Assembly (NCBI GenBank): GCA_949358305.1
Contig: OX442314.1
Location: 9,231,060-9,295,059, forward strand
Direction of reading: 5' to 3'
DNA: 64,000 bases
Source of the DNA: Strigamia acuminata
Taxonomy: Eukaryota; Arthropoda; Chilopoda; Geophilomorpha; Linotaeniidae
Shown here piece after piece: positions 2,029 through 51,663 of the stretch. The notes under the pieces were generated by a model that saw only the letters and a list, made by a program, of their open reading frames with translations, was not told where the DNA came from and did not search any database. The position numbers were made by a program, and so were the translations under genes. The first letter of the stretch is position 1. The number at the start of each line of letters is the position of its first letter.

Positions 2029-5000
2029 TTATTGTTCTTCTTCTTTCATCTTGGCATCATCTTGAAGACCCACACGATCACGGCCTTCTTCAAACTTGTC
2101 CTTTGCCAGCGGTTTAGTCAAGAAATCCGCAACCATTTCTGCTGAAGGAAGGTGGACCAGCTTGATATTTCCCAATTTTAGATCGTCCTTAATAAACATC
2201 ATATGTCGATTCATATGCTTGGTCCGCCCAAACTGGTTTGAACCACAAAGAACTTGAATGCCGGGTGTGCAGTCAGTGTAGATTGGTACGCATCTTGGCA
2301 CGCAATCCCCCTCACCGACCTCGCTTAGGAAATCTCTTGCCCATTTGATTATTTTGAGCAGTTCACAAATCGCAAGTATCTCGCTCTCGGTGGTGGACAT
2401 CGCCACCAAACGTTGTCTTTTCGTTTTCCATCCGATAGTTGCGTCGCCGATCTTTAAAATCAAGCCCGTGTGTGACTTAGCATCTTGGGTTACACACCAA
2501 CTTGCGTCCGCGAATCCTTGTAAGCTTCCTTCTTTGCTTGAGAAGAACAAACGCAAATCTTTTGTACCGTTGACATAACGCAAAACGCGTTTCGCTGCTC
2601 GAAAGTGCAGTTGGCGAGGATCTTTGGAGAAAGCTGAGAGAGCGCTCACAGCATATGACAAATCCGGACGAGAAACAATCATCAGGTGCATCAAAGAACC
2701 GATGATCTGCTGGTATAAATTCTGATCAACCTTCTTTGATTTGTCGAAGTCCTCCAAATCCTGTCCTGTTGCCATCGGCGTTTTCGCAGTGATCCCATTG
2801 AGTAAGTCAAATTTTGTCAAAATGTCGTTTACATATTTTTGTTGTCCCACGTATACTCCGTCCTTAGTGACCGAAATTTCCATTCCGAGAAGGAAGTGAA
2901 CTTCCCCCATGTCGACTATTTCGAAAACCTTCTTTAGTCGTTTTAGTATCCGATCAAGAATTCTTTGTCTCGTGAAAGCAGCCAAAATATCGTCCACGTA
3001 CACGCCCAAAATTATGTAGTCATTTTTATGTCTATAAATATAGACACACCGGTCGTTTATGAGCGGTTTCAAGCCAATCTTGATCAGTTCCTGGTCAAGT
3101 CGCTCGTTCCAGCATCGCCCCGACTGGCGCAACCCGTACAGGCTGCGTTCCAGTCGGCAAACGAGATCGTCTTGCTCGTAACCTTCCGGTTGTTCCATAA
3201 AGATGACTTCGTCCAACAATCCGTAAAGGTACGCGGTCTTAATGTCGAACTGTCGCGTCAACAGTCCGTGTCTGGCTATCATCGAAAGTATGATCCGGAG
3301 CGACTCCATCCTCACTACGGGCGAAAAAGTCTCCGTGAAATCCACACCAGGTCGTTGGGAATACCCCACCGCCACCAGGCGTGCCTTATACTTATTGACG
3401 CTTCTGTCGGCATTAAGTTTAATGCGGAAAATCCATTTGCTTTTCACCGTCACTGTCTGTCTTTCCCTCTTTACAAGTGTCCATACTTTATTGATGTGTA
3501 GAGAATTAATCTCGCTGTCCATCGCTTCTTGCCATTTCTTTCTGTCATTGCAGTTTACCGCCTCTACGTAAGTTTCAGGAGTGAACAGCTCTTCCACACA
3601 CTCTATTGCAGCATTGACCGCCTCTTGTTGCGCTGCTATGCGCTCCGAGCGTCGCACTCCCTCTTGTTGCAATCGCTCTTCGCGCTGCGCAAGCTGTTCC
3701 GCCAGTCTCTGCTCAAGCGCCGCTTTCGTCGCGCCCCTGGGTCGCCCCACCTGCACCGGCTGAAGTGGCTGCGGTGCGGCGTCGTCAACAGCGATAACCG
3801 GGTGTTCGACCTCGTCTTGAGCGTCCTGCAACTCGTTCACCGGTTCAACAGGAAAAATGGCGTCTTCCTCTTCTTGGCAAAAACGTTGCTTTGCCCCCTC
3901 ATCGTTTAAACCAAAAACGTCTGCACCTCGCACCTCCTCATTGAATCCTACCGTCCTGCCCTCTTCTACTTTACCGTCTTTCGGAACGTAAATTCGATAG
4001 GCTTTCCTGTCGACTGAATAACCGACAAATATGCCGTGTTTGGCTTTCGGATCCAATTTCCGTCGCTTTTCCTCCGGTATGTGCAAAAAGGCTTCGCAAC
4101 CAAAAATCCGCAAGAATGCAACTGTCGTCTTGTGTTTCGACCATAACTCCTCGGGTGTAAAATCCCCATTCGGCTTGGTAAACGATCTATTTTTGACATA
4201 GACCGATGTGGCGATCGCTTCGGCCCAAAACTTCAAAGGAAGGCCCGATTTGATTAGCAGTGTCCGAGCCGCCTCTACCAGCGTACGATTCGCTCTCTCA
4301 GAAATTCCATTACTAGAAGGATTAAAGGGAACCGTAAGCTCGTGCAGAATGCCCTCAGATTCGAAAAAACGCTTGAAATTTGCATTGACAAATTCCCCAC
4401 CGTTGTCACTTCTAAACCTTTTGAGTTTGTAGCCAGTTTGCTTCTCTGCCATGTTCTTGAATATTTCAAAATGTTCAAAGCATTGAGATTTCTCCCGCAA
4501 GAAAAACGCGAATTTTTTGCGTGTAAAATCATCAGTTAGAATCAAAGCATACTTGCTGCCTCCCAGCGATGCAGTCTGAAACGGTCCAACCATATCCCCA
4601 TGAATAAGTTGCAAAACTTCAGATGACTGCTTCCCCTTGACTCTTTTGTACGGGCTTCTCGTCATTTTTCCCAACGTGCATGCAGTGCATTTTTCCAAAT
4701 GCACGTCCGCATATTCCAGCCCGTGCACAATCTGTTTGTCTCGCATTTTATCTATTGCACGCTCATTTAAATGACACAGTCGCTCATGCCACAATTCCTT
4801 GCTGGCTGGGCGAGGTTGCACAGAAACTGCGTTGGCTTCCTCTCCAACCCATTGGTGCAGTAAATACATGCTGCCATTTAATGTTCCTGTTGCAATCGTC
4901 ATTCCTCTTGGGTCCTTAATTTCCGCGACTTTATTGTTGAATGAAATCGCATAATTATTAGCGGTAAGACGTGGAATTGACAACAGATTGCCTTTCAACT

Positions 5001-6093
5001 CTGGCACAAATAAGACGTCGAGGAGCAAAATCTTCATGAATTCCGTTTCTGAAAGCTTGCATCTCAAAATGATATTCCCTTTCCCCGTAGCCAACAATTT
5101 TGCGCCCTTTTTGGCTGTGGTGACCACTGCTTCGATTTCCTTGAAAGTCCCAAACAATTCCCGTTTTCCAGACATATGCGCCGACGCGCCGGAATCGAGA
5201 ATCCACTCGTCTTGACAATCGTCGCCGCCCAAATCGACGACAAAAGCATGCTGGATAACCGCTTCCTGTTGTGCTATTTTTGCCGTGGCTGCCTCTCTTG
5301 GTCGTTGTGACGCTGGACTCGGCCTCTTTTCGGGGTAGCGCTGCCAACAATTCTTGGCAATGTGGCCACTTTTACCACATTCATAACAGGCTGATTTTGA
5401 AACGTTTTTCAACTTCTTGCCGCCCGAATTACGTCCCACCTGCGCCTTGAACGCAACCGTCACGTTGTCCACGGTCTGTCCCTTTGAGTGGAATGTCGCC
5501 CACTGATCTTCCATTTTCAGTGACCGTCGCAAATCTTCAAATTTCGCGTCTGCCGCGTCACGATAATTTCGTGCAATATTGCCATATTTTGGCAAAAGTC
5601 CTCGTGTCGTGTAATGAAGAATCTCGCGGTCCGAAACAACCTTTCCTACCGCTTTGGCTTTTGCCTGAATCGACTTGGCCCTGTTCAAGTAACCATCCGT
5701 CGACTCGTCGTGTCTCATGCGCAGCTCCGCAAGTTCCGAACCAGCGTCAATTTGTCGCTCTTCCGTGGTACCTGCGTACTGCGCTTTCAACGCCTCCCAA
5801 AGCGCCTTGGCCTCGGTAAAAGCCATACAGTTTGTGGCTTCTTCGTCCGACATCGTTAAAACTATAATCCCTAAAGCCTCGTCATTATTTTTGGCCCACG
5901 CTTCGTGCTTCTTCAGCGCGTCTGCATACGTTGCATCCGTCGCGTCGGGCACTATCGGCTCCGGTTTCGTGATGACGCCTTTCAAACCTTTTGCAGCTAG
6001 AAGTGTCCCCACTTTGAATTGCCAAGTAAAATAGTTTTGAGGTTTTAGAAGTTCAATTCGATTCAAAGATGTACTTGCAATCGCATCCGCCAT
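2029..6093 (-). CDS. copia Gag-Pol polyprotein, 1354 residues
   Basis: A single uninterrupted frame, as is usual for copia elements. Domains in order: a Gag region of about 230 residues; one zinc knuckle, CYECGKSGHIAKNC (about 236-249); an aspartic protease with DSGA near residue 300; a GAG-pre-integrase segment and an integrase core with HGDMVGPF, DNGGEF and GISERANR; reverse transcriptase with the YVDD signature; and a C-terminal RNase H ending in the ADFLTKPL motif typical of the family. The integrase-before-reverse-transcriptase order separates copia from gypsy. No stop or frameshift is visible, so the protein is probably functional. The start is the first ATG of the frame, about 120 nt inside the 5' LTR. 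Confidence 0.96.
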   Translation of the reverse strand: MADAIASTSLNRIELLKPQNYFTWQFKVGTLLAAKGLKGVITKPEPIVPDATDATYADALKKHEAWAKNNDEALGIIVLTMSDEEATNCMAFTEAKALWEALKAQYAGTTEERQIDAGSELAELRMRHDESTDGYLNRAKSIQAKAKAVGKVVSDREILHYTTRGLLPKYGNIARNYRDAADAKFEDLRRSLKMEDQWATFHSKGQTVDNVTVAFKAQVGRNSGGKKLKNVSKSACYECGKSGHIAKNCWQRYPEKRPSPASQRPREAATAKIAQQEAVIQHAFVVDLGGDDCQDEWILDSGASAHMSGKRELFGTFKEIEAVVTTAKKGAKLLATGKGNIILRCKLSETEFMKILLLDVLFVPELKGNLLSIPRLTANNYAISFNNKVAEIKDPRGMTIATGTLNGSMYLLHQWVGEEANAVSVQPRPASKELWHERLCHLNERAIDKMRDKQIVHGLEYADVHLEKCTACTLGKMTRSPYKRVKGKQSSEVLQLIHGDMVGPFQTASLGGSKYALILTDDFTRKKFAFFLREKSQCFEHFEIFKNMAEKQTGYKLKRFRSDNGGEFVNANFKRFFESEGILHELTVPFNPSSNGISERANRTLVEAARTLLIKSGLPLKFWAEAIATSVYVKNRSFTKPNGDFTPEELWSKHKTTVAFLRIFGCEAFLHIPEEKRRKLDPKAKHGIFVGYSVDRKAYRIYVPKDGKVEEGRTVGFNEEVRGADVFGLNDEGAKQRFCQEEEDAIFPVEPVNELQDAQDEVEHPVIAVDDAAPQPLQPVQVGRPRGATKAALEQRLAEQLAQREERLQQEGVRRSERIAAQQEAVNAAIECVEELFTPETYVEAVNCNDRKKWQEAMDSEINSLHINKVWTLVKRERQTVTVKSKWIFRIKLNADRSVNKYKARLVAVGYSQRPGVDFTETFSPVVRMESLRIILSMIARHGLLTRQFDIKTAYLYGLLDEVIFMEQPEGYEQDDLVCRLERSLYGLRQSGRCWNERLDQELIKIGLKPLINDRCVYIYRHKNDYIILGVYVDDILAAFTRQRILDRILKRLKKVFEIVDMGEVHFLLGMEISVTKDGVYVGQQKYVNDILTKFDLLNGITAKTPMATGQDLEDFDKSKKVDQNLYQQIIGSLMHLMIVSRPDLSYAVSALSAFSKDPRQLHFRAAKRVLRYVNGTKDLRLFFSSKEGSLQGFADASWCVTQDAKSHTGLILKIGDATIGWKTKRQRLVAMSTTESEILAICELLKIIKWARDFLSEVGEGDCVPRCVPIYTDCTPGIQVLCGSNQFGRTKHMNRHMMFIKDDLKLGNIKLVHLPSAEMVADFLTKPLAKDKFEEGRDRVGLQDDAKMKEEEQ

Positions 6094-18290: not shown

Positions 18291-18840
18291 TCGTTTAAGA
18301 ATTCGGTTTTGCACACAAAAATTTGGTTTTACGGACAAAAATTTGGTTTTACACCCGAAAATTTGGTTTTACACCAAAAAATTCTGTTTTCACACCCAAT
18401 AATTCAATTTGACACTCAGAAATTTAATTTTACATTTAATCAATTTTTCCACAAAAAAATCATTATTTTCACATAAAAAACAATTTTTCCACAGAAAAAT
18501 CAATTTTTCCACAGAAAAATCAATTTTTCCACAGAAAAATCAATTTTTCCACAAAAAAATCAATTTTTCCACAAAAAAATCAATTTTTCCACAAAAAAAT
18601 CAATTTTTCCACAAAAAAATCAATTTTTCCACAAAAAAATCAATTTTTCCACAAAAAAATCAATTTTTCCACAAAAAAATCAATTTTTCCACAAAAAAAT
18701 CAATTTTTCCACAAAAAAATCAATTTTTCCACAAAAAAATCAATTTTTCCACAAAAAAATCAATTTTTCCACAAAAAAATCAATTTTTCCACAAAACAAT
18801 CAATTTTTCCACAAAACAATCAATTCTTTCACAAATAAAT
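18291..18840. repeat. 20-bp minisatellite, block A
   Basis: The left third has AAATTTGGTTTTACACCAAA-type 20-mers. From 18479 to about 18800 the unit CAATTTTTCCACAAAAAAAT repeats almost without change. Because 20 is not a multiple of three, all three frames are used in turn and a spurious 153-codon frame results. Confidence 0.95.
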
Positions 18841-18865
18841 CAATTTTGTTGTGTTCTGTATATGT

Positions 18866-19904: not shown

Positions 19905-21190
19905 AATGAATTTTACATCCAATCAATTTTTCCACAAAAACATCAATTTTTCAACAAAAACATCAATTTTTTCACAAAAACATCAATTTTTCCACAAAAA
20001 CATCAATTTTTCCACAAAAACATCAATTTTTCCACAAAAACATCAATTTTTCCACAAAAACATCAATTTTTCCACAAAAACATCAATTTTCCCACAAAAA
20101 CATCAATTTTCCCACAAAAACATCAATTTTCCCACAAAAACATCAATTTTCCCACAAAAACATCAATTTTTCCACAAAAAAATCAATTTTTCCACAAAAA
20201 AATCAATTTTTCCACAAAAAAATCAATTTTTCCACAAAAAAATCAATTTTTCCACAAAAACATCAATTTTTCCACAAAAACATCAATTTTTCCACAAAAA
20301 CATCAATTTTTCCACAAAACAATCAATTTTTCCACACATAAATCAATTTTACATCCAATCAATTTTTCCACAAAAAAATCAATTTTTCCACAAAAAAATC
20401 AATTTTTCCACAAAAACATCAATTTTTCCACAAAAACATCAATTTTTCCACAAAAACATCAATTTTTCCACAAAACAATCAATTTTTCCACAAAAACATC
20501 AATTTTTCCACAAAAAAATCAATTTTTCCACAAAAAAATCAATTTTTCCACAAAAAAATCAATTTTTCCACAAAAAAATCAATTTTTCCACAAAAACATC
20601 AATTTTTCCACAAAAACATCAATTTTTCCACAAAAACATCAATTTTTCCACAAAACAATCAATTTTTCCACACATAAATCAATTTTACATCCAATCAATT
20701 TTTCCACAAAAAAATCAATTTTTCCACAAAAAAATCAATTTTTCCACAAAAACATCAATTTTTCCACAAAAACATCAATTTTTCCACAAAAACATCAATT
20801 TTTCCACAAAACAATCAATTTTTCCACACATAAATCAATTTTACATCCAATCAATTTTTCCACAAAAACATCAATTTTTCAACAAAAACATCAATTTTTC
20901 CACAAAAACATCAATTTTTCCACAAAAACATCAATTTTTCCACAAAAACATCAATTTTTCCACAAAAACATCAATTTTTCCACAAAACAATCAATTTTTC
21001 CACACATAAATCAATTTTACATCCAATCAATTTTTCCACAAAAAGATCAATTTTCCCACAAAAACATCAATTTTCCCACAAAAACATCAATTTTCCCACA
21101 AAAACATCAATTTTTCCACAAAAACATCAATTTTTCCACAAAAAAATCAATTTTTCCACAAAAAAATCAATTTTCCACAAAAATCCGATT
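19905..21190. repeat. 20-bp minisatellite, block B, with a 16-bp anchor unit
   Basis: Over 60 copies of a 20-bp unit, ATCAATTTTTCCACAAAAAC, the same 20-mer as block A with an A/C variant. A shortened 16-bp unit, AATCAATTTTACATCC, recurs as an anchor. Its ACATCC word is at 19915, 20351, 20687, 20843 and 21019: spacings 436, 336, 156 and 176, each equal to 16 plus a multiple of 20. A 367-codon frame through the array is not a protein. Confidence 0.96.
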
Positions 21191-21697
21191 TTCCAAAATC
21201 CGATTTCGTTTTTATGACGGAAAAACCGTCACTTCCGGGCTCCCAAAATCAGCTAAATCAGCGAAATCCATTTTATATTGAACGCGCCTAATATTTTACC
21301 CAAAAAATCAATTTATTCTACTCAAAAAATCAACAACAAAGAGTTAGTATGTAACTTTCTAAAATTACACGTCCGAACACGTCTATCCAACAAATCCCGA
21401 ACCCAAAAGAAACCAAACCAACAAAAAAAAACGCCCGCTTGTAAAAACGAAAAGCAAAACGTAAACAAATGACTTTCACTTTAATCCAGTTCCTAAACAT
21501 TCGAAAGTTTTCGCGGGAAGTGATTCACCTGAGGTTACGCACCTGTTGACACACCTGCAACCGGTGAGGGGAAACGATGACCGTGACTCGAGACTCCACC
21601 ATCATCACTGACCTCGTTTTCGAGCCGGCAACAGGGTCGTCAACCTTCGTCGTAACAAGTTCCGACATGTTCTCGCCAAACCACAACCTCGCACCCG
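21191..21697. other. Spacer rising in G+C toward the gene at 21851
   Basis: AT-rich to about 21520, then G+C-richer with CpGs. A short ATG frame at 21577-21792 is probably promoter-region DNA, not a gene. Confidence 0.4.
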
Positions 21698-21850
21698 ATT
21701 GGCTCCCACACACCGCGCGCGAAACATCCGCAAATGACGTCACGCCAACAAACAGACGGACAAACCGAAGCGGTTACGTCACGCGCGGATGATGCCGAGA
21801 GTTGTGGAGTGCGAGTGCACGTGGAGCGAAGGCTCAGATTGAGTTATGCG
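21698..21850 (+). promoter_or_regulatory. Likely promoter and 5' UTR of the BH3 gene
   Basis: Contains an inverted CCAAT box (ATTGG, 21698-21702), a full palindromic CRE TGACGTCA (21735-21742) and a second CRE-like TACGTCA (21775-21781). A TCAGATTG at about 21834 could serve as an initiator. An ATG at 21846, five bases before the proposed start and in another frame, opens a 14-codon upstream frame. Binding and start site are inferred from motifs only. Confidence 0.45.
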
Positions 21851-24293
21851 ATGGAGACGTGCGAGTGCTGCGACAAGTGGTCATCTCTGATGGGTTCTTC
21901 GTCCGTTCGTCTGCCGCGTTGGATGCCGTTCGCGGGCGTGCTCCGCTCGACCGGAGCGCGGGTGATGCACGCGCTGGTCGTCAACGTGCCCGTGCAACTC
22001 GTGTTTGATGGACAAGTGCAAATCTTTGCGATGCACACGTTGGTGCAGGTTGTGTTCCACACCGTGTTCACGGCTGCTTCGAGGCTAAATCAAGGTGAGT
22101 CACTGAGTAAATTTAGATTTTTTTAATTTGTCTTGATTTATTTTTTAGTTTTGCTTTTTTTTTTCACTTTTTTCACTTTCTTTCACTTGCTTTGTGTTTT
22201 CATTTTTTATTCATTTCTTCCATGTTTTTATTCACTTTTTCCACGTTTTCCCATGTATTTATTCATTTTTTCCATGTTTTTCCATGTTTTTCCACTTATT
22301 ATTCATTTTTTCCATGTTTTATTCATTTTTTCTACGTTTTTATTCATTTTTTCCACGTTTTCCCATGTATTTATTTCTTTTTTTCATGTTTTTCCATGTT
22401 TTTCCACTTATTATTCATTTTTTCCATGTTTTTATTCATTTTTTTCCATGTTTTTACTCATTTTTACCATGTTTTTATTCATTTTTTCCATGTTTTGCCA
22501 TGTTTTTCCACGTTTTACCATGTTTTTATTCATTTTTTCCATGTTTTGTCATGTTTTTCCACGTTTTACCATAATTTTCCATTTTTTATTCATTTTTTCC
22601 ACTTATATTCATTTTTTGCATGTTTTTCCATGTTTTGCAATGTATTTCCACCTTTTTTCACGTTTTCCCATGTTTTTCCTTTTCATTTTTCCTTTTTTCC
22701 CAATATATTCCAACATTTCCAATTTCTTTTTTTCTTTTTTCACATTTTTGCATCAAAAAATTGACTTTTCCCGTTCTTTAGGCGACGGCACTTTACCCGA
22801 TGTTGTTCCGCCGCTGGAGCAAGACGTGTACGGGAGCATCGGACACGGACTCAGGCTATTAGCCGACGATTTTGACGGCGGCTCCACAAACCCGACGACG
22901 AGTCTCTTCGGCTGCTTGTCAGTTATTTTCGCACAGGTGAGACATTTCTGCACGTCAAAACGCACTTTTTTCGACCGAGAAACGGCGAGATGAGCGCGTT
23001 TTGATGTTTATCTGGTGTTGGTGACAGCTGCATCGTTAATTTGATGGCGAAACAAGTCGAAATGAGTCGATCTGACACTTTACAAATGACCCAGCCCATT
23101 AAATCCACAAATAAACTCAATGCACCGCATTCAATGTTTTTTATTTTTATTTTTATTAATTTTTTCAATTTTAATTATCATTGAGTTTGGTGGATTCTGA
23201 TGGCAAGCAGTTGAGTGGCGCCATCTGGCGGTGATAAAGGAGGTGCGCTTAATTTGTGATGAATTTGTGATGCAATGCGTAAAATTGGAATGGCAGCTGA
23301 ATAATTAGATGGAGTGACCACTCTAGTTGTCCGAGCCTTTGTCCAGTTTAATTTATTCATTGGTATTTAGAATTTTTTTTTAATTTTTTTTAAATTTTTT
23401 TTTTAAATTTTTATTTATTTATTTATTCATAGAAGTGATATTTATGACGTCATATTTCATGCGGAGATTGTGTTTGACTTATTAAATTTTCATGAAATGT
23501 TTGTATAAGTTCTAATCACTTGCATCAACAGATTGGTTAAGTCAACACGTTGATCCAAATTGATCCTGACTTTATATCTCGCGTTCTAAAAATTCGATTT
23601 AATTAAAAATGGGGGGAGGAGTGTAAAATAAAAGAGTGGTTTTTATTATTAACACTAGGTGCGTTCAAATTGGTTTAAAAAAATCTGCTTAAATGTTTTA
23701 AGTCGATAACCTCGTTTTCATTTCTGGATATGACGGTTTTATGTCATATTTTGCTTAAGTTAGGCCAAGGATGCGATTTGCGCATGCTCAGTTGAACAAT
23801 CATTCATTTCTCAATTGCGCAAAAGCCTGCGTATTAGTGATACAGAAACGAATCGCGATATAACGAATTATTCGTTATAACGAATCACGATATAACGAAT
23901 TATTCGTTATAACGAATCACGATAGAACGAATTATTCGTTATAACGAATAGGTAAAAATGTCCCATTTGGTTGGTTGGCCGTAGAACACTATGTTAAAAA
24001 AAATTCGTTATAACGAATTATCGTTATAACGAACTGATTTTTTGGTTCCTTGCTATTCGTTGTAAGGAGTTTCGACTGTATTAGTATTTTGTTGAGTAAA
24101 TAAGTCGCTTATTTCACTTATTTGTAGTTTTAGTATTTGTTTAAGTGGCGGATAATTTGAACGCAATTGGTGATTTTTTTGTTTATTTTTTTATTTATTT
24201 AAATTTTATTTTTTTTTATTAATTTTTTTATTTATTTATTTGTAGGGTTGGCATTTCCTCGTTCAACTGATGGATTATTTGTGGAATTTTTAG
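21851..24293 (+). CDS. Candidate BH3-only apoptosis activator (three exons, 148 aa)
   Basis: Exons 21851-22094, 22782-22936 and 24246-24293 join in phase (phase 1, then phase 0) at GT-AG sites: CAAG/GTGAGT, TTCTTTAG/, CACAG/GTGAGA, TTTGTAG/. The frame ends TAG at 24291. Residues 101-113, IGHGLRLLADDFD, fit the BH3 consensus hydrophobic-x3-hydrophobic-x2-hydrophobic-small-Asp-x-hydrophobic-Asp at every position. A hydrophobic patch (SLFGCLSVIFAQ) and a Trp-rich tail (GWHFLVQLMDYLWNF) follow. No BH1 (NWGR-like) or BH2 is visible, so it resembles BH3-only proteins such as EGL-1, Bim and Bmf, which neutralise anti-apoptotic Bcl-2 proteins at the mitochondrion. Exon 1 has G/C-rich third positions but matches nothing I know. 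The frame is also open upstream to an ATG at 21734, so the start is uncertain. The splice model is inferred. Confidence 0.6.
22140..22745. repeat. 10-bp T-rich minisatellite in intron 1 of the BH3 gene
   Basis: Irregular copies of TTTTTCCATG and TTTTTATTCA words, roughly 10 bp each, fill most of intron 1. They give overlapping spurious frames of Phe, His and Ser in all three frames. Confidence 0.85.
23216..23232 (-). promoter_or_regulatory. CTCF-like motif in intron 2 of the BH3 gene
   Basis: The minus strand reads CACCGCCAGATGGCGCC, close to the CCASYAGRKGGC core. It faces the + strand motif at 15872. Confidence 0.35.
23843..24078. mobile_element. Pogo/Tigger-like inverted-repeat element (MITE), TA duplication
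   Basis: 236 bp from CAGAAACGAATCGCGATATA to TTCGTTGTAAGGAGTTTCGACTG, flanked by TA on both sides (23841-23842, 24079-24080). The CAGTCGAAAC-type end and TA target fit pogo/Tigger relatives of Tc1-mariner. The interior has several TTCGTTATAACGAA palindromes. There is no transposase. It sits in intron 2 of the BH3 gene. Confidence 0.8.
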
Positions 24294-30524: not shown

Positions 30525-31930
30525 TTTTTGCCAGTTTTTGCCCGATTTTGTCCGGTTTTGCCCGATTTTGCCCGATTTTGCCCGATTTTGCCCCGGTTTT
30601 GCTCGATTTTGCCCGGTTTTGCCCGAATTTGTCCGATTTTAGTAGATTTTGCCCGATTTTGACAGATTTTGTCGGACTTTTGTAAGATTTTGACCGATTT
30701 TGCCCGGTTTTGCCCGATTTTGCCCGGTTTTGCCCGGTTTTGCCCGGTTTTGCTCGGTTTTGCCCGATTTTGCCCCGGTTTTGCCCGATTTTGCCCGGTT
30801 TTGCCCGGTTTTGCCCGAATTGCCAGATTTTGTCCGATTTTAGTAGATTTTGCCCGATTTTGACAGATTTTGTCGGACTTTTGTAAGATTTTGACCGATT
30901 TTGCCCGGTTTTGCCCGATTTTTCTCGGTTTTGCCCGATTTTGCCCGAATTGCCAGATTTTGTCCGATTTTAGTAGATTTTGCCCTTTTGACAGATTTTG
31001 TCGGACTTTTGTAAGATTTTGACCGATTTTGCCCGGTTTTGCCCGGTTTTGCCCGGTTTTGCTCGGTTTTGCCCGATTTTGCCCCGGTTTTGCCCGATTT
31101 TGCCCGGTTTTGCCCGGTTTTGCCCGAATTGCCAGATTTTGTCCGATTTTAGTAGATTTTGCCCGATTTTGACAGATTTTGTCGGACTTTTGTAAGATTT
31201 TGACCGATTTTGCCCGGTTTTGCCCGATTTTTCTCGGTTTTGCCCGATTTTGCCCGAATTGCCAGATTTTGTCCGATTTTAGTAGATTTTGCCCTTTTGA
31301 CAGATTTTGTCGGACTTTTGTAAGATTTTGACCGATTTTGCCCGGTTTTGCCCGATTTTGCCCGGTTTTGCCCCGGTTTTGCCCGGTTTTGCCCGGTTTT
31401 GCCCGATTTTGCCCGGTTTTGCCCGAATTGCCAGATTTTGTCCGATTTTAGTAGATTTTGCCCTTTTGACAGATTTTGTCGGACTTTTGTAAGATTTTGA
31501 CCGATTTTGCCCGGTTTTGCCCGGTTTTGCTCGGTTTTGCCCGATTTTGCCCCAGTTTTGCCCGGTTTTGCCCGGTTTTGCCCGGTTTTGCCCGAATTGC
31601 CAGATTTTGTCCGATTTTAGTAGATTTTGCCCGATTTTGACAGATTTTGTCGGACTTTTGTAAGATTTTGACCGATTTTGCCCGGTTTTGCCCGATTTTT
31701 CTCGGTTTTGCCCGATTTTGCCCGAATTGCCAGATTTTGTCCGATTTTAGTAGATTTTGCCCGACTTTGGCAGATTTTGTCCGACTTTTTAAGATTTTGA
31801 CCGATTTTGCCCGAACTTGCAGATCTTCACGCCAGATTTTGCCAGATTTTGCAAGCTTTTGCCCGATTCTGCATGATTTTGCATGATTTTGCCAGATTTT
31901 GTCCGATTTCTCCCGAACTTGTGCATCTTC
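30525..31930. repeat. 10-bp minisatellite with higher-order blocks
   Basis: The basic 10-mer is TTTTGCCCGA/TTTTGCCCGG. A variant run, GACAGATTTTGTCGGACTTT, recurs at 30661, 30862, 30990, 31171, 31299, 31468 and 31639, so the 10-mers are organised into longer blocks (for example 201+128 then 181+128). It decays to the right through about 32060. Confidence 0.94.
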
Positions 31931-39263: not shown

Positions 39264-40240
39264 TGTGGTAATCTCAAAATATTCACCAACTTAGAAGATA
39301 AAATTAATTGTCTTCTAATTAATTTGACTGTGGCACACGCCAAGTCAGATCATGTGACCGAGGGGAGAAATCCTCTCTAGGCACATATCACCCCAGGTTG
39401 TCCGGGGTGAAAACGGTTATTAGCCGTTATGGTGCAATATGGTGTAATAACCACTAGTTGCACCCATTTGAGCTAAGTGCGCAGGTTTTCTGCGCAATAT
39501 TGAAGCGTGCTGGGCTCGCGCCTTGGCTCAAATCGGGACTCTGAAAAATAACACACAACCACAAACATCACTGCTTTTGCTCCTGAAAGAAAAGTATTGA
39601 TAGTGGACTCGTGTTCTTCAGTTTCACCTGCTATCTTTGTGCAACAAACGCACAAAGCCAGCAATTCTGCTTGAATTAGCCGTAGCTAATTCCAGCAATC
39701 GAGAAGAGAAGTTTCCCGACGATCGTGAACCATCGCCGTCGCTGTTGCGCGAACGACAGCCACCGCCATCGTACGAGAGCCGGACGCCTGCCCCGTGAAC
39801 CACCGCCACTGAGAGCCGTCGTACGAGGACAGAAGAAACTCACGAGAACCATCGTCTTCGACCATCGTTCGTGAGTTTGCAGAACGAAGACAATTTGCCT
39901 TCGCCTAACAACATTGTGTTGTTTAAGCGCCATTTCTGACGCTTTGTAGCTTGCAACAGTCGTTGCAAGCCCTTCCTTTGTTTCATTGTTTCCCGCTCAT
40001 TTTAATACGCGACTTGTCGCACCTTGTGATATTCTTAATTTTAACTAGTCATTTCCATTGTAATTAAACCGAATAAAACATATTGTGATTTTTATACTGA
40101 AAACTATCTTTTTATTTCTTTTCCTTAAACTTAACCCCTAGATAATTTAAGGCCGCCGATTGTAAGTCTTTTAAAGCATTCACCTGCGGTTTCTGCTTAA
40201 TTTATTAGAAATTAAGTGGATAAAAACCCGGATCGCAGCA
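39264..40240 (+). repeat. gypsy 5' LTR
   Basis: 977 bp from TGTGGTAATCTC to GGATCGCAGCA. It carries AATAAA at 40072-40077, suited to polyadenylation in the 3' copy. Minus-strand frames within it are duplicated exactly in the other LTR and are not genes. Confidence 0.97.
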
Positions 40241-40242
40241 CG

Positions 40243-40260
40243 TGGGGGCCCGTCCGGGAT
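40243..40260 (+). other. gypsy primer-binding site, tRNA-Pro type
   Basis: TGGGGGCCCGTCCGGGAT, two bases after the LTR. It is complementary to the 3' end of a tRNA-Pro and differs by one base from the well-known tRNA-Pro primer site of murine leukaemia virus. Confidence 0.85.
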
Positions 40261-40353
40261 AGTCATTGTATAAATTTTGATAGTTTAAAATTTACCCGCC
40301 ATTTTTATCTTGCTTATCTTTCTTCTCTATCCTTTCTAAATCCTCATTGAAAA

Positions 40354-42927
40354 ATGGCGACTCCTTCAGAGAAGAGACCGAGAGGAAGGCCGGCGAAGAG
40401 ACGAGTGGCGATCGATCTACCAGTCGTGGATCAAGAAGTGACTGAGTCACAAGAACTGTTTGAAGCCATGGATCAAACAGCTAACTGTAACTCGGCACAG
40501 TTAATCGTGAATGAATTCACGCAAGCGTTGGAGCGACAACAGCCATCCCCGCCCAGCGGCCAGTTGGACTTAAATAATCCAACTGGAAGTGGCCGTTCCA
40601 AGACGCAAAACGATGATTTGAATTTACGAATTCAATCATCAAGTGCAGAGCACTCGCTGAATTCATCACCGGTTCAAGGTGCAGCACAGCAAGATTCTGA
40701 GAACTCCAATATGGAAGTTTCTCATTCTCCCGTGCGTGTTACCATGATGGACGCACTCCGTGAGCAAGCTAGGCTCGAGGGAGTAAAAGTCACTAGCGAA
40801 ATGACTGTGGAACAAATCCACAAAGCTATGGTTCGCAAACAAAGCCAAAAAGACGTTGAAATCGTCAGAACAAGCTTGCAAGCAGAGTTCGAGCGAATGC
40901 ATGCAGAAATGCAGCAGCAAAATGCCAAACTAAAACAACAACGTGCAAATGATCACGTTAAGTTGTTAAATTTAGAGCAGGAAAAAGCTTCCTGGCTAAT
41001 TACTGACGAAGAGCAACAACAAAGGCTCGAGCAACTAAATCAAGCACAAAAAGATTTAGAAATTGCTAATGAAAATTTGAGATTGGCCAACGCAAATTTG
41101 CGAGAAGCCAACGCAAATTTGCGAGAAGCCAACACAAATTTAATGACTGCCGAACTAACCGCCCCAGTTCGAGCGAGGGAAGTAATTCCCTCCACTTCTC
41201 GAAATTACGAGAATTATGCTGCAGAACAAGCAGCAAGAGCTAAGAGATTAGCACAACGAGAAAACGAAATATTTCTCGCTCGACAGCAGTCAGTAATTGA
41301 TGCTGGTCAAGCCGCCAAAAGTCAAAGTACTGCAGAGCAGTTATTACGTGCCGACTTAGCTGCGCAAGCTCGTGAAAACGAAATTCTTCGCGCAGATCTA
41401 CTGACAGTACAAGAAAATTTTGCAGTAGTTGTACAAAAAGTACAAGACGTTTGCGGCGAAGATAATTTTGCAAAGCCAGCCCCAGTTTTGCAAAAAGGTG
41501 CTTCCAAATCACCTGAGTTGATTGATTTAACATCAGCTAAACCAAAAGTCAGTCGACAATCAAGTTGGACTGACAGCGATGACTCACGCAGTAGTCGTGG
41601 AAGCCGTAATAGTCATCACAGTCGCAAAAAGCGAAAGCGACAACCAGACCCGACCGAATATCATTCCCCAAACGTTCCGCAAAATTCGGATCGATTCTTT
41701 AGCAATAGTGACCGATTAATCGGATTGCTAGAGAGAAAAAATAAAGAACGTGAGAAACCACACGATCGTGGACGGTCACACGATAATCCGCGAGAAGGCT
41801 CACCGAAACGAGATTGTCATAACGACATCCGTGATGGGCCGAGGTACCGTGGAAATCCACCAGGTGGTGACCCACCGGGTGGAGATAGTTCAGATGGACA
41901 TGGAGGTGGCCACTCACGTGACCACAATTCGAATGGCAATCGAGGTGGAAGGGGACCACCAAATGGAGACCGTCGTCCGCCAGATGGCGACGATCCTCCG
42001 GACCCTGATCCGCCGCCAAATCCGAATCATGAATCTGCGTCAGATACAGATTCCTCACACCCCAGTGTGAGAGGGCGATCTCGTCACAGAACACGTAGTA
42101 GAACTCAAAGACCCGACTTCTACACGAAAGATGAGATTGACCAGCTGTTGAGGCAAAATGCTCAACAACAGCGAAAAAGCAGAAGGGATAAAATTATTTT
42201 GCAAAAAATAAATGAATTCACTTCTGATAAATGGACTCATCAAACAACAGATGAAAAGTTCATTAGATGGGATCGAGTTATCCCACATGCCTATAATGGA
42301 AATTGGCAAGCAGGGTCAAACCTCTTGCTGGAAATATTCGAACTAGGCAAGGTTCACAGTTTTGGCTGTGAAGGTGCATTGGCCCATCTAGTACCAAGAA
42401 TACTGGTTGGCGATGTCAAGGAGTGGTTTCGCAGGAAAGACTTCACGAAGTGGGATGACTTCGTTAAACAATTTATGTTTAAATTTGGTGAATCGAGCGA
42501 AGACATCAAGACGCTCTGGAGATGTCTTAAGCAACGAAAAGGCGAAAGCTTACATTCGTACATGCTAAGAGCAGAGAATCTGCTTGGCAGAATGCCACAT
42601 GCTGTTACTGATGCAACAGCTGATGATCAGTTTAGAGCTGGCCTCACAGAATATAGTAAAAATATTCTGATGATGTCGGACGCTCCCGACCCGGGGAAAT
42701 TCTCCGAGTTAAATGAGTTCATGGAGGTCAATCAATTGCGCATTGACGAAAAGTACAAAGCTTACCTTACAGATAGCGAAAGGTCAGCGTACTTAAAGCG
42801 AGAGAAAAGACTCGCTGAGCAAAACAATGAAACCTTCAATGGTTTGAAATTGTTGCAGCCACCTAGTTACGAAGACTTTCTAGACGAGGTGGAAGGGAAG
42901 AGTTCGAAAAAAGAATCTTCCAAATAG
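40354..42927 (+). CDS. gypsy Gag, 857 residues, ending in UAG
   Basis: Starts at an ATG 113 nt after the LTR. The N-terminus has an AT-hook-like core (KRPRGRPAKRR, residues 7-17). Residues about 120-360 are a long Gln/Glu/Arg-rich coiled coil with degenerate repeats (LREANANLREANTNL). A Gly/Asp/Pro/His/Arg-rich linker follows at about 410-600. Residues about 610-800 are the capsid-type retrotransposon Gag domain (WFRRKDFTKWDDFVKQF, then FKFGESSEDIKTLWR). The frame stops at TAG 42925-42927 before any zinc knuckle, but the same frame is open again at once. The product forms the virus-like particle. Its size is large for a gypsy Gag. Confidence 0.93.
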   Translation: MATPSEKRPRGRPAKRRVAIDLPVVDQEVTESQELFEAMDQTANCNSAQLIVNEFTQALERQQPSPPSGQLDLNNPTGSGRSKTQNDDLNLRIQSSSAEHSLNSSPVQGAAQQDSENSNMEVSHSPVRVTMMDALREQARLEGVKVTSEMTVEQIHKAMVRKQSQKDVEIVRTSLQAEFERMHAEMQQQNAKLKQQRANDHVKLLNLEQEKASWLITDEEQQQRLEQLNQAQKDLEIANENLRLANANLREANANLREANTNLMTAELTAPVRAREVIPSTSRNYENYAAEQAARAKRLAQRENEIFLARQQSVIDAGQAAKSQSTAEQLLRADLAAQARENEILRADLLTVQENFAVVVQKVQDVCGEDNFAKPAPVLQKGASKSPELIDLTSAKPKVSRQSSWTDSDDSRSSRGSRNSHHSRKKRKRQPDPTEYHSPNVPQNSDRFFSNSDRLIGLLERKNKEREKPHDRGRSHDNPREGSPKRDCHNDIRDGPRYRGNPPGGDPPGGDSSDGHGGGHSRDHNSNGNRGGRGPPNGDRRPPDGDDPPDPDPPPNPNHESASDTDSSHPSVRGRSRHRTRSRTQRPDFYTKDEIDQLLRQNAQQQRKSRRDKIILQKINEFTSDKWTHQTTDEKFIRWDRVIPHAYNGNWQAGSNLLLEIFELGKVHSFGCEGALAHLVPRILVGDVKEWFRRKDFTKWDDFVKQFMFKFGESSEDIKTLWRCLKQRKGESLHSYMLRAENLLGRMPHAVTDATADDQFRAGLTEYSKNILMMSDAPDPGKFSELNEFMEVNQLRIDEKYKAYLTDSERSAYLKREKRLAEQNNETFNGLKLLQPPSYEDFLDEVEGKSSKKESSK

Positions 42928-43398
42928 GACGTCAAAAATCCTCATTCAGTTCCTAAGTTACATGCAAATATAACTGGAGCTGAAACTCCGTCGTCTGAAG
43001 CTGAAGAAGCTGAAGAGGAGGAGGAAGCAGGAGATGAGACGTTGGCTTTATTAGCCAAAGCAGCGGCGTTGTTAGCAAAAAATAACCCCGTTGCAGGCAA
43101 ATGGAAGCCAAGAATGAAACCAAAAAATGTTTCATTTGACGCATCAAAGGTGAATACCGAAAGGAATTCAAAGTCACCTGCGGTGTCGCCAGAGCGCCGG
43201 TCTGACGCTCGTTCTCGTTCTGCCTCACCAGCAGCAACGAAAAAGAAATCGCCTGCCACTGATCCATGCAATTTATGCAAAAAATTAGGGCATTGGCAAA
43301 AAGACTGCCCATCCTCTAAGAGGGACAAACCAGTGTCAACAGCTGAGTTTGAAAAAGCAGTCAAGATCATAACTGACATGTTTCGAAAAAACTTGTAG
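42928..43398 (+). CDS. In-frame Gag extension with a zinc knuckle (nucleocapsid)
   Basis: Same frame as gag, open from the codon after the UAG to TAG at 43396-43398 (156 codons). It has an acidic stretch (SSEAEEAEEEEEAGDE), a Ser/Arg-rich basic region and one CCHC knuckle, CNLCKKLGHWQKDC, the RNA-binding nucleocapsid signature. It has no good start of its own near the UAG, so it is most simply made by UAG read-through, or the UAG is a mutation in this copy. Confidence 0.75.
   Translation, partial: DVKNPHSVPKLHANITGAETPSSEAEEAEEEEEAGDETLALLAKAAALLAKNNPVAGKWKPRMKPKNVSFDASKVNTERNSKSPAVSPERRSDARSRSASPAATKKKSPATDPCNLCKKLGHWQKDCPSSKRDKPVSTAEFEKAVKIITDMFRKNL
43386..43392 (+). promoter_or_regulatory. 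-1 ribosomal frameshift site A-AAA-AAC
   Basis: In the gag frame the codons read CGA AAA AAC TTG TAG. This is the canonical X-XXY-YYZ slippery heptamer placed two codons before the gag stop. The pol frame is the -1 frame and is open across the site. I could not test for a downstream stem or pseudoknot. Confidence 0.8.
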
Positions 43399-43418
43399 AC
43401 GCAGATCCATCAGGTCTA

Positions 43419-46400
43419 GTGGACGCTGCGTCACCTCTGAAATCGGAATCAGAAAATGAAAATCTGAAGATAATGGAAGATGTTGGAGAAGTTATTGATG
43501 AATTAATTCGTCAAACAGAACTAAAAGAAAAGGAATCTCTTGAGTTAAAAAAGGAGATTGTCGGCGAAACTCCGACTGAAGAAGACACTTCCAATATTAA
43601 AGATAAAGTCGAAGTTAAAGACGATAGACCAAGCTCAGTTCCAGAGACACCTGGAATTGAGGAGTGCATTAAGTTATTTGCAACTACAACTCTTGATACC
43701 AATGAGTTATTAGACGAACTACCTTTGGAGCCTCCAATTACAGTTCCTCATAAATTGCGCAAGTTTGAGTGCAAAGTGGCTGGAATACCAAACAGCCATG
43801 ACCTTCCAACGTTGAAGTTAGAAACGTTAAAAGGTGTAATAACTGGAATGTTGGACTCAGGAGCAAATAAAAGCTTCCTAGCCACTTCAGTTATTAACCA
43901 ATTAGGTCTAGAAAAATATCTACGACCTATCGGACCTGGTGTCAGAGTTACGACGGCAAGTGAAGAAGTCACTCCAGATGGAACCATCCATCTTTCATTT
44001 CGATGGACACATGGCACGTTACGTCATCCGTTCATCGTAATACCAAATAAGTATCCCATGGTACTATTGGGTTGCGATTTTATGAATAAGTTAAAAATCC
44101 AACCTAATCCACAGACGATGTCTTGGAATTTCACGCAACCTGTGGATGCAGATTTACCCTACATTCCACAAGCGTTGCTGGAACGTTATTTGGAGAAAAT
44201 AGAGGAACCCGATTCCTCATTTATGACCTTCGCAAAAGCATACGCTGCAAGTGTAACTCAAGGCAAAATTGATGAAGAGAATTTCATCCAAAAGTTAGTC
44301 GAAGAAGCTAACTTAAATTTGGAGCAATCCAAATTATTAGAAAAGATGTTATCCAAACATAAAAGGATTATTTCTAAAGATCCAGGTAAAACACACCTGG
44401 TTAAGCACAAAATTGAGCTTGACACGGAGAAACCCATCCGTGTCCCCTTTAAGAGCATAAACCCTCAAAAAAGGGAAATAATCAGACAACTTTGTCAAGA
44501 CATGATTGACAAAGGCGTAGTCGTCAAAGCTGAAGGCGATTACGGAATGCGGCCAGTCCTAGTCATGCGACCAGGAAACGACCCACGTTTGTGCATTGAT
44601 TTTCGCCCCATCAATACACATACTAAGTACAACCCACCTCAAATGCCAACAATTGAGGAAATTCTGCGAGAAATCGGAGAATTCGAGTGGGTCAGTACTA
44701 TAGATCTGACCAAGGGATATTGGCAGATAGAATTGCGACCTGAAGACAGAGAAAAAACTGCCTTCTGGAGCCCAATGGGAAGACTAATGTTTTTAGTCAT
44801 GCCTTTCGGATTAGTAAACGCACCAACTACCTTCCAAGAATTGATGGAAAAAGTTTTGGGTGACGTTTACAGAAAATTTGCATGGGCATATTTGGATGAC
44901 ATAATTGTTGTATCCAAATCGTTCGAAGAACACATTAAACATTTAGATATAGTGTTTAAAAAATTGGCAGAAGCTAATTTACATGCGCATCCTGGCAAGA
45001 CGCATCTCTGTAGAAAGGAATTAATTTTTCTAGGCTACAAAGTAGGAGTAGAAGGACTTGCAGTAGACCCTAAAAAAGTCGCTGCAATTACGCAATTTCC
45101 GGCTCCTACCAATCTTAAGGAATTACAAAGATTTCTAGGCATGGTGAATTTCTTTCACCGCCTAATCAAGAATTTGGCCACAGTGGCAGAACCACTAAGG
45201 CCTCTCTTGAAGAAAGATGCGGAGTTCGATTGGGAACTGCATCATCAGGCAGCATTCGACGCAATAAAAGACTTACTTACGAATGCTGAAACAATGAAGA
45301 TGCCTGACTTGTACATGCCATTTATTGTTCATACTGACGCCAGTAGACAAGGGTTGGGTGCAGCCCTTACACAAAAGAAAAATGTGGATGGCCAAGAAGT
45401 CGAAATGCCATGCGTGTATGCAAGCAGAAGCTTGCAGCCCGCTGAAAAGAATTATACTGTGACAGAATTGGAATGTCTCGCAGTAGTATGGGGATTGCGC
45501 AAATTTCGCCCATACTTAGAGTACACTACATTCACTGTACAAACGGATCACCAAGCACTTAAGTGGTTGATGTCGTTATCTGACCCGTCGGGCAGATTAG
45601 CTCGTTGGCAAATGGAGCTGATGGCGTATTCGTTCGAAATACAGTACGTCAAAGGTCCGCTAAATGTAATAGCAGACGCATTGTCACGTGCACCTGTCAG
45701 CGCACCTGACGAACCAGAAGACGATGGCGATAATGATGATTTATTATCATATTGTCCATCTCCTTGCCGAAGTTGGCAAATGGGAAAATTGAACGAATTA
45801 CCCAAGTCAATAATAGTCAATGAAGATGATCAAGCATTAATTAATTTTTGTATTAATATGCATGATCCGTCAGGAACCCCTGACGTCGAATTAAGAGCTA
45901 TGATGGCTAAAAAATTCGAGCTGCCAACAACAAATGTTTTAATTAAAGCATTTGCAGCTAAAATTGCTAAACAATTGGAATGTGATCCTCCAACGAGAGA
46001 TGACATTATTGCAGAGCAAAAAGCAGACAAATTTTGCCAATATATTCGCAATTACTTATTAAATAAGCAATATCCAAGTTACATAGTAACTCGTCTTCAA
46101 AGAAGAAATTTTGAAAGACACGCGAGTACTTATCTCATTGAAGAAGATATGTTACTCCATTATCATCCTACCTCTACCGATGAATTGGGAGAGGATGGTA
46201 GGGCACTTAAAGTTGTTGTGCCAAGAAAATTGATTTATAAAATCATTTGGTTGATGCACGGACATCCACTGTCCGGCCACCCAGGCATTGCGAGGACAAT
46301 GTACCGAACTCGAAGAGTTTATACCTGGAAAGGTATGAAACGTGATATTACACGTTTTATTCAGCATTGTCAAGGATGTCAGGCATGTAAGCCGAGATCA

Positions 46401-47645: not shown

Positions 47646-47883
47646 CGTTGACTTTCACCTTTTGGGTTCACCCAAAAGATCCGAGAGGGCAATCTCGTGA
47701 CGTCATTCGTAGTTCACACTCGAATGACAACGTTCACAATGCGTTATAATTTGTGACGTCATTCGGTGTCACCGAAACAAGTTCGTTTCTCCAATCAACG
47801 AACTTAGCCACTTTTCCGATAAGTTTTGAAGTGGATGCATCGACTCCGATACCACACGACAGTTTTTATTGATTCAGCAAACT

Positions 47884-47949
47884 GTAAGTTATTTTTCTGA
47901 AAGAAAAATTCGATAAATATATTTAATATAGTTTATTACTTCTTTCTAG
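47884..47949 (+). other. Probable intron in the ORF3 leader (66 bp)
   Basis: Donor ACT/GTAAGT and acceptor TTCTTTCTAG/C, 66 bp apart and 38 bp before the ORF3 start codon. It would lie in the 5' UTR of an ORF3 message. Confidence 0.5.
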
Positions 47950-47987
47950 CCGAAAGAATTTCTTTTTCGACGCGAAAAAGAAAACGA

Positions 47988-50634: not shown

Positions 50635-50673
50635 ATTGGTTCGTTCATTTTCTCTCCATGTAAGATTCGTCTT

Positions 50674-50686
50674 AAATGGGGGGATG
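50674..50686 (+). other. gypsy polypurine tract
   Basis: AAATGGGGGGATG immediately before the 3' LTR, the expected plus-strand primer. Confidence 0.85.
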
Positions 50687-51663
50687 TGTGGTAATCTCAA
50701 AATATTCACCAACTTAGAAGATAAAATTAATTGTCTTCTAATTAATTTGACTGTGGCACACGCCAAGTCAGATCATGTGACCGAGGGGAGAAATCCTCTC
50801 TAGGCACATATCACCCCAGGTTGTCCGGGGTGAAAACGGTTATTAGCCGTTATGGTGCAATATGGTGTAATAACCACTAGTTGCACCCATTTGAGCTAAG
50901 TGCGCAGGTTTTCTGCGCAATATTGAAGCGTGCTGGGCTCGCGCCTTGGCTCAAATCGGGACTCTGAAAAATAACACACAACCACAAACATCACTGCTTT
51001 TGCTCCTGAAAGAAAAGTATTGATAGTGGACTCGTGTTCTTCAGTTTCACCTGCTATCTTTGTGCAACAAACGCACAAAGCCAGCAATTCTGCTTGAATT
51101 AGCCGTAGCTAATTCCAGCAATCGAGAAGAGAAGTTTCCCGACGATCGTGAACCATCGCCGTCGCTGTTGCGCGAACGACAGCCACCGCCATCGTACGAG
51201 AGCCGGACGCCTGCCCCGTGAACCACCGCCACTGAGAGCCGTCGTACGAGGACAGAAGAAACTCACGAGAACCATCGTCTTCGACCATCGTTCGTGAGTT
51301 TGCAGAACGAAGACAATTTGCCTTCGCCTAACAACATTGTGTTGTTTAAGCGCCATTTCTGACGCTTTGTAGCTTGCAACAGTCGTTGCAAGCCCTTCCT
51401 TTGTTTCATTGTTTCCCGCTCATTTTAATACGCGACTTGTCGCACCTTGTGATATTCTTAATTTTAACTAGTCATTTCCATTGTAATTAAACCGAATAAA
51501 ACATATTGTGATTTTTATACTGAAAACTATCTTTTTATTTCTTTTCCTTAAACTTAACCCCTAGATAATTTAAGGCCGCCGATTGTAAGTCTTTTAAAGC
51601 ATTCACCTGCGGTTTCTGCTTAATTTATTAGAAATTAAGTGGATAAAAACCCGGATCGCAGCA
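50687..51663 (+). repeat. gypsy 3' LTR
   Basis: 977 bp at a constant offset of 11423 from the 5' copy, same sequence by eye. It ends 228 bp before the start codon of lipase copy 2, so its promoter or read-through could affect that gene. Confidence 0.97.

What the first reader, a model, noticed from the sequence alone, without database searches (positions are those of the whole stretch)
21851..24293. An unannotated-looking BH3-only death gene in a repeat desert
Three exons join in phase to a 148-residue protein. Its residues 101-113, IGHGLRLLADDFD, meet the BH3 consensus at each position, including the invariant small-Asp pair and the flanking hydrophobics. No BH1 or BH2 is visible. BH3-only proteins are short and diverge fast, and few are known outside vertebrates and nematodes, so automated annotation would easily miss this one. 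The SLF...FA patch after the motif recalls the layout of nematode EGL-1 (from general knowledge of that family).
Basis: partly seen in the sequence, partly recalled or inferred. Interest (0 to 1): 0.87.

Follow-up and report, generated by a model that had tools for sequence, protein, structure and literature searches.

The report
Centipede BH3-only death-gene candidate, duplicated
A short gene model in what appears to be a centipede chromosome carries the cell-death trigger motif BH3 and seems to have a sister gene about 53,000 bases upstream; if real, this is a kind of death-signal gene that I found described in arthropods only from flies, but nothing shows yet that either gene is expressed or binds its target.

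Summary
In detail: three exons (21851-22094, 22782-22936, 24246-24293) join in phase to 148 residues with IGHGLRLLADDFD at 101-113. It is not in a repeat desert, and the EGL-1-like layout is not shown. The assembly matches the centipede Strigamia acuminata. The bare BH3 pattern is at chance level (8 matches in the window); the 13-residue core is the best of 68,610, the 20-residue context is not. New evidence lies outside the window: about 53 kb upstream, same strand, a second gene model (U) has an LC8-type GTQT motif and a BH3 exon with the same intron phases and a shared G-x-L-P-D-V-x-x-P. In a 12-column BH3-profile scan of 264 kb the two rank first and second of 284,213. The genome encodes Bcl-xL-, BAX- and BOK-like proteins. 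Best reading: a tandem pair of Bmf/Bim-like BH3-only genes. Against it: no RNA, no second species, no binding test; neither gene finds the other genome-wide; no Pfam BH3 family recognises either; most comparisons with human BMF and BIM are not above shuffles. New member of a known kind; confidence 0.55.

The parts
21851..22094 (+). Exon 1 (81 codons plus one base, ends in phase 1), N-terminal part of the predicted protein F
   Evidence: Open frame, donor AAG|GTGAGT; stated frame best of six; GC by codon position 0.59/0.43/0.74, like the Bcl-2 genes, against 0.64/0.54/0.51 for 21734-21850
21734..21850 (+). Possible N-terminal extension from an upstream in-frame ATG
   Evidence: codon-position GC is less coding-like, but the stretch 21656-21850 also scores best in this frame
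22095..22781 (+). Intron 1 (phase 1), largely a T-rich tandem array (22197-22679)
22782..22936 (+). Exon 2, BH3 exon, between phase-1 and phase-0 introns
   Evidence: second of 284,213 in the 12-column profile scan, after the sister exon; AlphaFold2 helix over residues 11-32 of 51, mean pLDDT 62.5
22787..22813 (+). G-T-L-P-D-V-V-P-P stretch shared with the sister gene (G-P-L-P-D-V-I-Q-P)
   Evidence: Only two matches to G.[LIV]P[DE][VI]..P in six frames of 264 kb, one before each BH3; the pattern was written after seeing both
22838..22876 (+). BH3 core IGHGLRLLADDFD
22937..24245 (+). Intron 2 (phase 0), with a 32-bp tandem repeat at 23847-23949
24246..24293 (+). Exon 3: 15-residue hydrophobic tail GWHFLVQLMDYLWNF and stop TAG
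   Evidence: the only one of three acceptors meeting my criteria that yields more than one codon

Best explanation
The finding (F) is the diverged downstream copy of a tandem pair of BH3-only genes of Bmf/Bim type in the centipede Strigamia acuminata. The upstream copy (U; C1:9191156-9191552 and 9200873-9201096, same strand, 30 to 40 kb before the window) has an acidic N-terminus, an LC8/dynein-light-chain type motif (SVGTQTSS) and a BH3 (LGRNLRDLADSF). F keeps the BH3 exon and its intron phases but has a first exon without visible likeness to U's and without a clear LC8 motif. Inferred mechanism: when F is made, the BH3 of exon 2 folds as an amphipathic helix into the groove of the genome's Bcl-xL-like proteins (I101, L105, L108 and F112 to the pockets, D110 to the BH1 arginine), freeing BAX/BOK-like effectors, while the hydrophobic tail of exon 3 holds it at a membrane. 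U would be held on LC8 until released, as Bim and Bmf are. Shown here: gene anatomy, profile match, likeness to U, presence of the partners. Inferred: expression, binding, membrane attachment, killing.
For: 12-column profile of 12 known BH3s over 264 kb, both strands: U 15.37 and F 14.47 bits rank 1 and 2 of 284,213; next 13.64. Upstream flanks of the best 100 BH3 hits (52 usable, 1,325 pairs): U-F ranks third (39), below two pairs that look like repeat copies; the next pair scores 32. Shuffling F's flanks with the core kept reaches the observed score in 20 of 20,000, shuffling the whole exon peptide in 0 of 20,000, the pre-core part alone in 7 of 20,000. Same strand, 52,896 bp between cores, same intron phases 1 and 0, 20 and 21 residues from the 12-residue core to the exon end. 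U's GTQT resembles the in-vitro evolved LC8 motif VSRGTQTE; Bmf has EDKATQTL (passages of PMC3078936). Partners, one of each type compared with the PDB: Bcl-xL-like (E 2.1e-19), BAX-like (1.3e-11), BOK-like (4.1e-27); one NB-ARC match. The two Bcl-xL-like proteins keep the BH1 arginine (GITWSR).
Against: No transcript, no second species, no binding test. A genome search with F did not return U (E<=0.001), nor one with U return F (E<=10). Pfam gives no family for F or U at E<=10; the BMF and Bim-BH3 models miss both in the genome, though Pfam recognises human BMF and BIM. F ranks 36th of 196,124 in the 20-column scan. With the best 200 BH3 hits (105 usable, 5,454 pairs) the U-F flank pair falls to seventh, and one pair above it (46) is a phenylalanine-rich chance match. 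DNA likeness of the two BH3 exons, and any likeness of the first exons, is not above shuffles. In U exon 1 the opposite strand is also open and scores better with my codon table (-0.149 against -0.323). No C-terminal exon was found for U. F's exon 1 product is hydrophobic, unusual for this class. BUB1, which as I recall neighbours vertebrate Bim and Bmf, lies on another chromosome.
Confidence: 0.55

Rival explanations
1. F is a real short gene, but the BH3-like stretch is a chance match and the likeness to U is coincidence.
For: The bare pattern occurs 8 times in the window; another BH3-like stretch, VIKEVRLICDEF at 23231 inside intron 2, where it cannot be part of this protein, outscores F on the 20-column profile; no known BH3 family model recognises F; F's flank likeness to U is only seventh among 5,454 pairs in the larger set.
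Against: U and F are the two best 12-column BH3 hits in 264 kb and share flanking residues and intron phases.
Confidence: 0.23
2. Exons 2 and 3 of F are an alternative 3' end of the upstream gene U: one gene with two BH3 exons, spliced from U's exon 1 over about 62 kb, F's exon 1 being a separate promoter or an artefact.
For: U exon 1 ends in phase 1 and F exon 2 starts in phase 1, so the join would stay in frame; no C-terminal exon was found for U.
Against: F has its own open exon 1 with a strong donor, 687 bp from exon 2, best-scoring frame of six; long tandem arrays lie between.
Confidence: 0.1
3. F is a decaying duplicate that is not expressed, or the exon 1 or exon 3 model is wrong, for example with the protein ending unspliced after exon 2.
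For: F's first exon is unlike U's and hydrophobic; repeats fill its introns; the unspliced continuation of exon 2 (18 codons) scores as well as the exons.
Against: All three exons are open and in phase with good splice sites.
Confidence: 0.12

Closest known systems
Bmf / Bim (BCL2L11), vertebrate BH3-only proteins
   Same: Through the sister gene U: acidic start (EIEDDEVF against ELEDDVF in human BMF as I recall it), TQT-type LC8 motif, then a BH3. F shares the BH3 and has a short hydrophobic C-terminal tail.
   Different: Of the comparisons with human BMF and BIM only two, both with BMF and U, rise above shuffles, one of them chosen afterwards; no Pfam hit; F has no clear LC8 motif; no BUB1 linkage.
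EGL-1, nematode BH3-only protein
   Same: BH3 core IGSKLAAMCDDFD (PDB 1ty4_C) agrees with F at 7 of 13 positions.
   Different: Human PUMA agrees as often (7), so this is not special to EGL-1; F has three exons; the genome has BAX- and BOK-like proteins, a type not reported from nematodes according to PMC7456325 (passages); phmmer of F's BH3 finds no PDB chain at E<=10.
Sayonara (synr), Drosophila BH3-only protein
   Same: An arthropod protein with a BH3 motif as its only BH region (passages of PMC10107002).
   Different: Sayonara is a coiled-coil protein of a large family whose BH3 arose in the lineage to Diptera (same passages); no comparison of sequences was made here.

Membership tests
BH3-only proteins (general) | BH3 core with four hydrophobic positions, small residue and Asp | tested here: met
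   I101, L105, L108, F112, A109, D110; best 13-mer of 68,610 in the window, though not with 20 columns
BH3-only proteins (general) | No BH1, BH2 or Bcl-2 fold | tested here: met
   No PF00452 match in the window; Pfam none at E<=10
BH3-only proteins (general) | Groove-bearing partners present in the same genome | tested here: met
   Bcl-xL-, BAX- and BOK-like sequences
BH3-only proteins (general) | Binds a Bcl-2-type groove | not testable with these tools
   No complex prediction or binding assay was available
BH3-only proteins (general) | Promotes apoptosis when expressed | not testable with these tools
   Needs an experiment
Bmf/Bim | LC8 (dynein light chain) docking motif before the BH3 | tested here: inconclusive
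   Sister gene U has SVGTQTSS; by eye F has only a weak V-Q-I in exon 1, with no statistical test
Bmf/Bim | Recognised by the BMF or Bim-BH3 Pfam models | tested here: not met
   No match for F or U; human BMF and BIM are recognised
Bmf/Bim | Hydrophobic C-terminal tail on a separate exon after the BH3 (exon layout recalled) | tested here: inconclusive
   F exon 3 GWHFLVQLMDYLWNF, but likeness to the BMF or BIM tails is not above shuffles
EGL-1 | Homology beyond the BH3 | not tested
   Only the BH3 segments were compared, using the part of the chain shown; the Pfam scan at E<=10 named no family

The most novel reading that the evidence does not exclude
An LC8-tethered BH3-only lineage of Bmf/Bim type was present in the arthropod ancestor and survives in centipedes as a tandem pair, beside Bcl-xL-, BAX- and BOK-like partners. 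The BH3-only sensor arm would then be ancestral in ecdysozoans and lost in the model flies and worms, not absent or invented separately each time.
Probability: 0.35. Interest if true: 0.75.

Novelty: new member of a known kind. Interest (0 to 1): 0.55.

Why it matters
[quoted passage not shown] elegans but not in insects (PMC8998228), that seeding with nematode or schistosome BH3-only proteins did not find them in the other branch (same paper), and that the fly case arose in the lineage to Diptera (PMC10107002). A Bmf/Bim-like pair in a myriapod, next to Bcl-xL-, BAX- and BOK-like genes, would place the whole three-part switch in an arthropod and make its ancestry directly testable in other myriapods, chelicerates and crustaceans. 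On print: the open library holds no paper with both Strigamia and BH3. In the listings (25 of 104 papers shown; 9 of 9; 15 of 1,389; 14 of 14; 14 of 14) I saw, from titles and abstract starts, no report of a BH3-only gene in a non-insect arthropod; three papers were opened for passages. Most subscription papers are not held, so a report may exist.

Tried and rejected
Chance BH3 alone: could not be dismissed from the motif itself, made less likely by the likeness to U. Multidomain Bcl-2 gene: no BH1/BH2 match in the window. EGL-1 homologue: not supported beyond the BH3 core. BUB1 synteny as a test of Bim/Bmf orthology: no linkage. Pfam BMF and Bim-BH3 models over the genome: nothing for U or F; two weak hits elsewhere, one with stops, one in a 182-codon frame that does not look like a BH3-only protein. 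C-terminal exon of U: two scans with different criteria, nothing convincing, and five candidate acceptors in the next 7 kb without a fitting peptide; an unspliced tail VRPRFFSMLVHTFV followed by AATAAA about 100 bases on is possible, but it scores at shuffle level. CRE sites near the promoter: TGACGTCA occurs 19 times in 264 kb, so not telling. Ten other window ORFs against Pfam: two weak hits, none above cut-off. Structure of exon 2 alone: helix over the BH3 at low confidence; not used as evidence of binding.

Full report
What was claimed.

The observation. The join is exact: ATG 21851, donors at 22094 and 22936, acceptors before 22782 and 24246, stop at 24293, phases 1 and 0, 148 residues. 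An earlier in-frame ATG at 21734 exists; codon-position GC suggests that coding begins nearer 21851, though the stretch before it also scores best in this frame. With a table of only 762 codons the stated frame scores best of six in each exon, narrowly in exons 2 and 3; the unspliced continuation of exon 2 scores no worse. Of three acceptors in the following 2.4 kb that meet my criteria, two stop after one codon and 24246 gives the 15-residue tail. The locus is not a repeat desert: tandem arrays lie just upstream and inside both introns.

Chance. The loose BH3 pattern occurs 8 times in six frames of the window. A 13-column profile from 12 recalled BH3 sequences puts IGHGLRLLADDFD first of 68,610 (16.2 bits with pseudocount weight 5; the known BH3s, each left out in turn, score 10.7 to 28.4), about 7e-7 per random 13-mer. 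With 20 columns the rank falls to 16th or 4th of 50,994. The motif alone would be a weak claim.

Where it comes from. The window is C1:9231060-9295059 of a 237,517,015-base assembly in 157 contigs. Size and contig lengths (66,985,994; 19,343,292; 16,989,096; 10,363,448 bases) match, to within 0.01 Mb, the genome note of the centipede Strigamia acuminata, qcStrAcum1.1: 237.5 Mb in 158 scaffolds, with chromosomes of 66.99, 19.35, 16.99 and 10.36 Mb (passages of PMC10556566). I made this match; the tool names no organism.

A sister gene. I read 100 kb on each side. At C1:9191156-9191552 an open exon on the same strand encodes an acidic N-terminus (MQEIEDDEVFEAES) and, near its end, RSVGTQTSS. At 9200873-9201096 a second exon joins in phase and encodes GPLPDVIQPMNERRHSLDGSALQNLGRNLRDLADSFRARSEE. 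Its intron phases are 1 and 0, as in F. The two BH3 exons agree in 17 of 59 alignment columns, including G-x-L-P-D-V-x-x-P before the core and G-x-x-L-R-x-L-A-D-x-F in it. A caution on U: in its first exon the opposite strand is open too and scores better with my codon table.

Is the likeness real? I found U by a pattern scan of part of the region and by reading open frames, so I then scanned all 264 kb on both strands with profiles that contain neither. With 12 columns U (15.37) and F (14.47) are the two best of 284,213; the third scores 13.64. With 13 columns F is first and U third of 270,869; with 15 U is first and F third of 246,490; with 20 U is first of 196,124 and F 36th (all). The pattern G.[LIV]P[DE][VI]..P, written after seeing both, occurs nowhere else in the 264 kb. 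Among 52 usable members of the best 100 BH3 hits (1,325 pairs) the upstream flanks of U and F score third, below two pairs that look like repeat copies; among 105 usable of the best 200 (5,454 pairs) they score seventh, one pair above them being a phenylalanine-rich chance match. Shuffles reach the observed score in 20 of 20,000 with the core kept and in 7 of 20,000 for the pre-core part. Against this, the DNA of the two BH3 exons and the two first exons show no likeness above shuffles, and genome searches with either protein did not return the other. If homologous, they are old duplicates. That identical residues use different codons fits this, but would also fit chance, so I do not count it.

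Family. U has the order seen in Bmf: acidic start, TQT motif, BH3. The LC8 motif resembles the consensus in PMC3078936 (passages: VSRGTQTE evolved in vitro; Bmf EDKATQTL). Against shuffles: BMF with U exon 1 whole 724 of 3,000, BIM with U exon 1 2,477 of 3,000, BMF with U exon 2 99 of 3,000, BIM with U exon 2 1,119 of 3,000, BMF and BIM with F exon 2 658 and 1,001 of 3,000, their tails with F exon 3 6,107 and 3,144 of 10,000. The first 25 residues of BMF with the first 20 of U give 64 of 10,000, a test chosen after seeing the alignment. The Pfam BMF and Bim-BH3 models find neither gene. Membership in Bmf/Bim is therefore not established; that F works like a BH3-only protein is the stronger claim.

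Partners. Seven PF00452 matches were found, six over the cut-off, one of these with a stop inside. One of each type was compared with the PDB: Bcl-xL-like on C4 (a near-identical second copy lies 29 kb away), BAX-like on C5 (exons alike by eye on C1 and C4), BOK-like on C10. One NB-ARC match was found. The two Bcl-xL-like proteins keep the BH1 arginine that, from established knowledge of Bcl-2 complexes, pairs with the BH3 aspartate.

How it would work. BH3 helix into the Bcl-xL-like groove, release of BAX/BOK-like effectors, tail at the membrane; U held on LC8 until freed. All of this is inferred. The AlphaFold2 model of exon 2 alone shows a helix over the BH3 at low confidence.

Verdict. A credible BH3-only candidate, strengthened by a sister gene, in an animal group for which I saw no report of one in the searches made (listings, some capped; three of the listed papers opened for passages). 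No expression, no cross-species conservation and no binding have been shown.

Noticed in passing
C1:9191156-9201096 (L025 97-493 and 9814-10000; L026 1-37), 30 to 40 kb before the window: Second BH3-only gene model (U) with an LC8-type GTQT motif; its C-terminal exon was not found, and the opposite strand of its first exon is also open.
   Followed up: partly
L013, L014 (C4:18.89 and 18.86 Mb): Two near-identical Bcl-xL-like genes about 29 kb apart on opposite strands, with a further Bcl-2-family match holding an in-frame stop close by at C4:18.858 Mb.
   Followed up: partly
L015, L016 and C4:18858430: Three BAX-like exons (one tested against the PDB, the others alike by eye) in one arthropod genome, two of them nearly identical on different chromosomes.
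   Followed up: partly
window 23219-23278: Another BH3-like stretch (VIKEVRLICDEF) in a short open frame inside intron 2; probably chance, but it outscores the finding on the 20-column profile.
   Followed up: no
window 2029-6093 (-): Open frame of 1,354 codons that reads like a Ty1/copia-type polyprotein (judged by eye).
   Followed up: no
window 39604-51419: Retroelement-like frames (40354-42927, 43419-47645, 48391-50634) between identical flanking open frames 11,423 bases apart, which look like long terminal repeats (judged by eye).
   Followed up: no
window 18438-18847, 19922-21183, 30526-31909: Large tandem arrays of 20-bp and 10-bp units; one frame over 19906-21009 reads openly as repeats of about 20 residues.
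   Followed up: no
G000 C8:10769146-10769214 (L039): Weak Bim-BH3 model match (E 2.42) in a 182-codon open frame that does not look like a BH3-only protein.
   Followed up: partly
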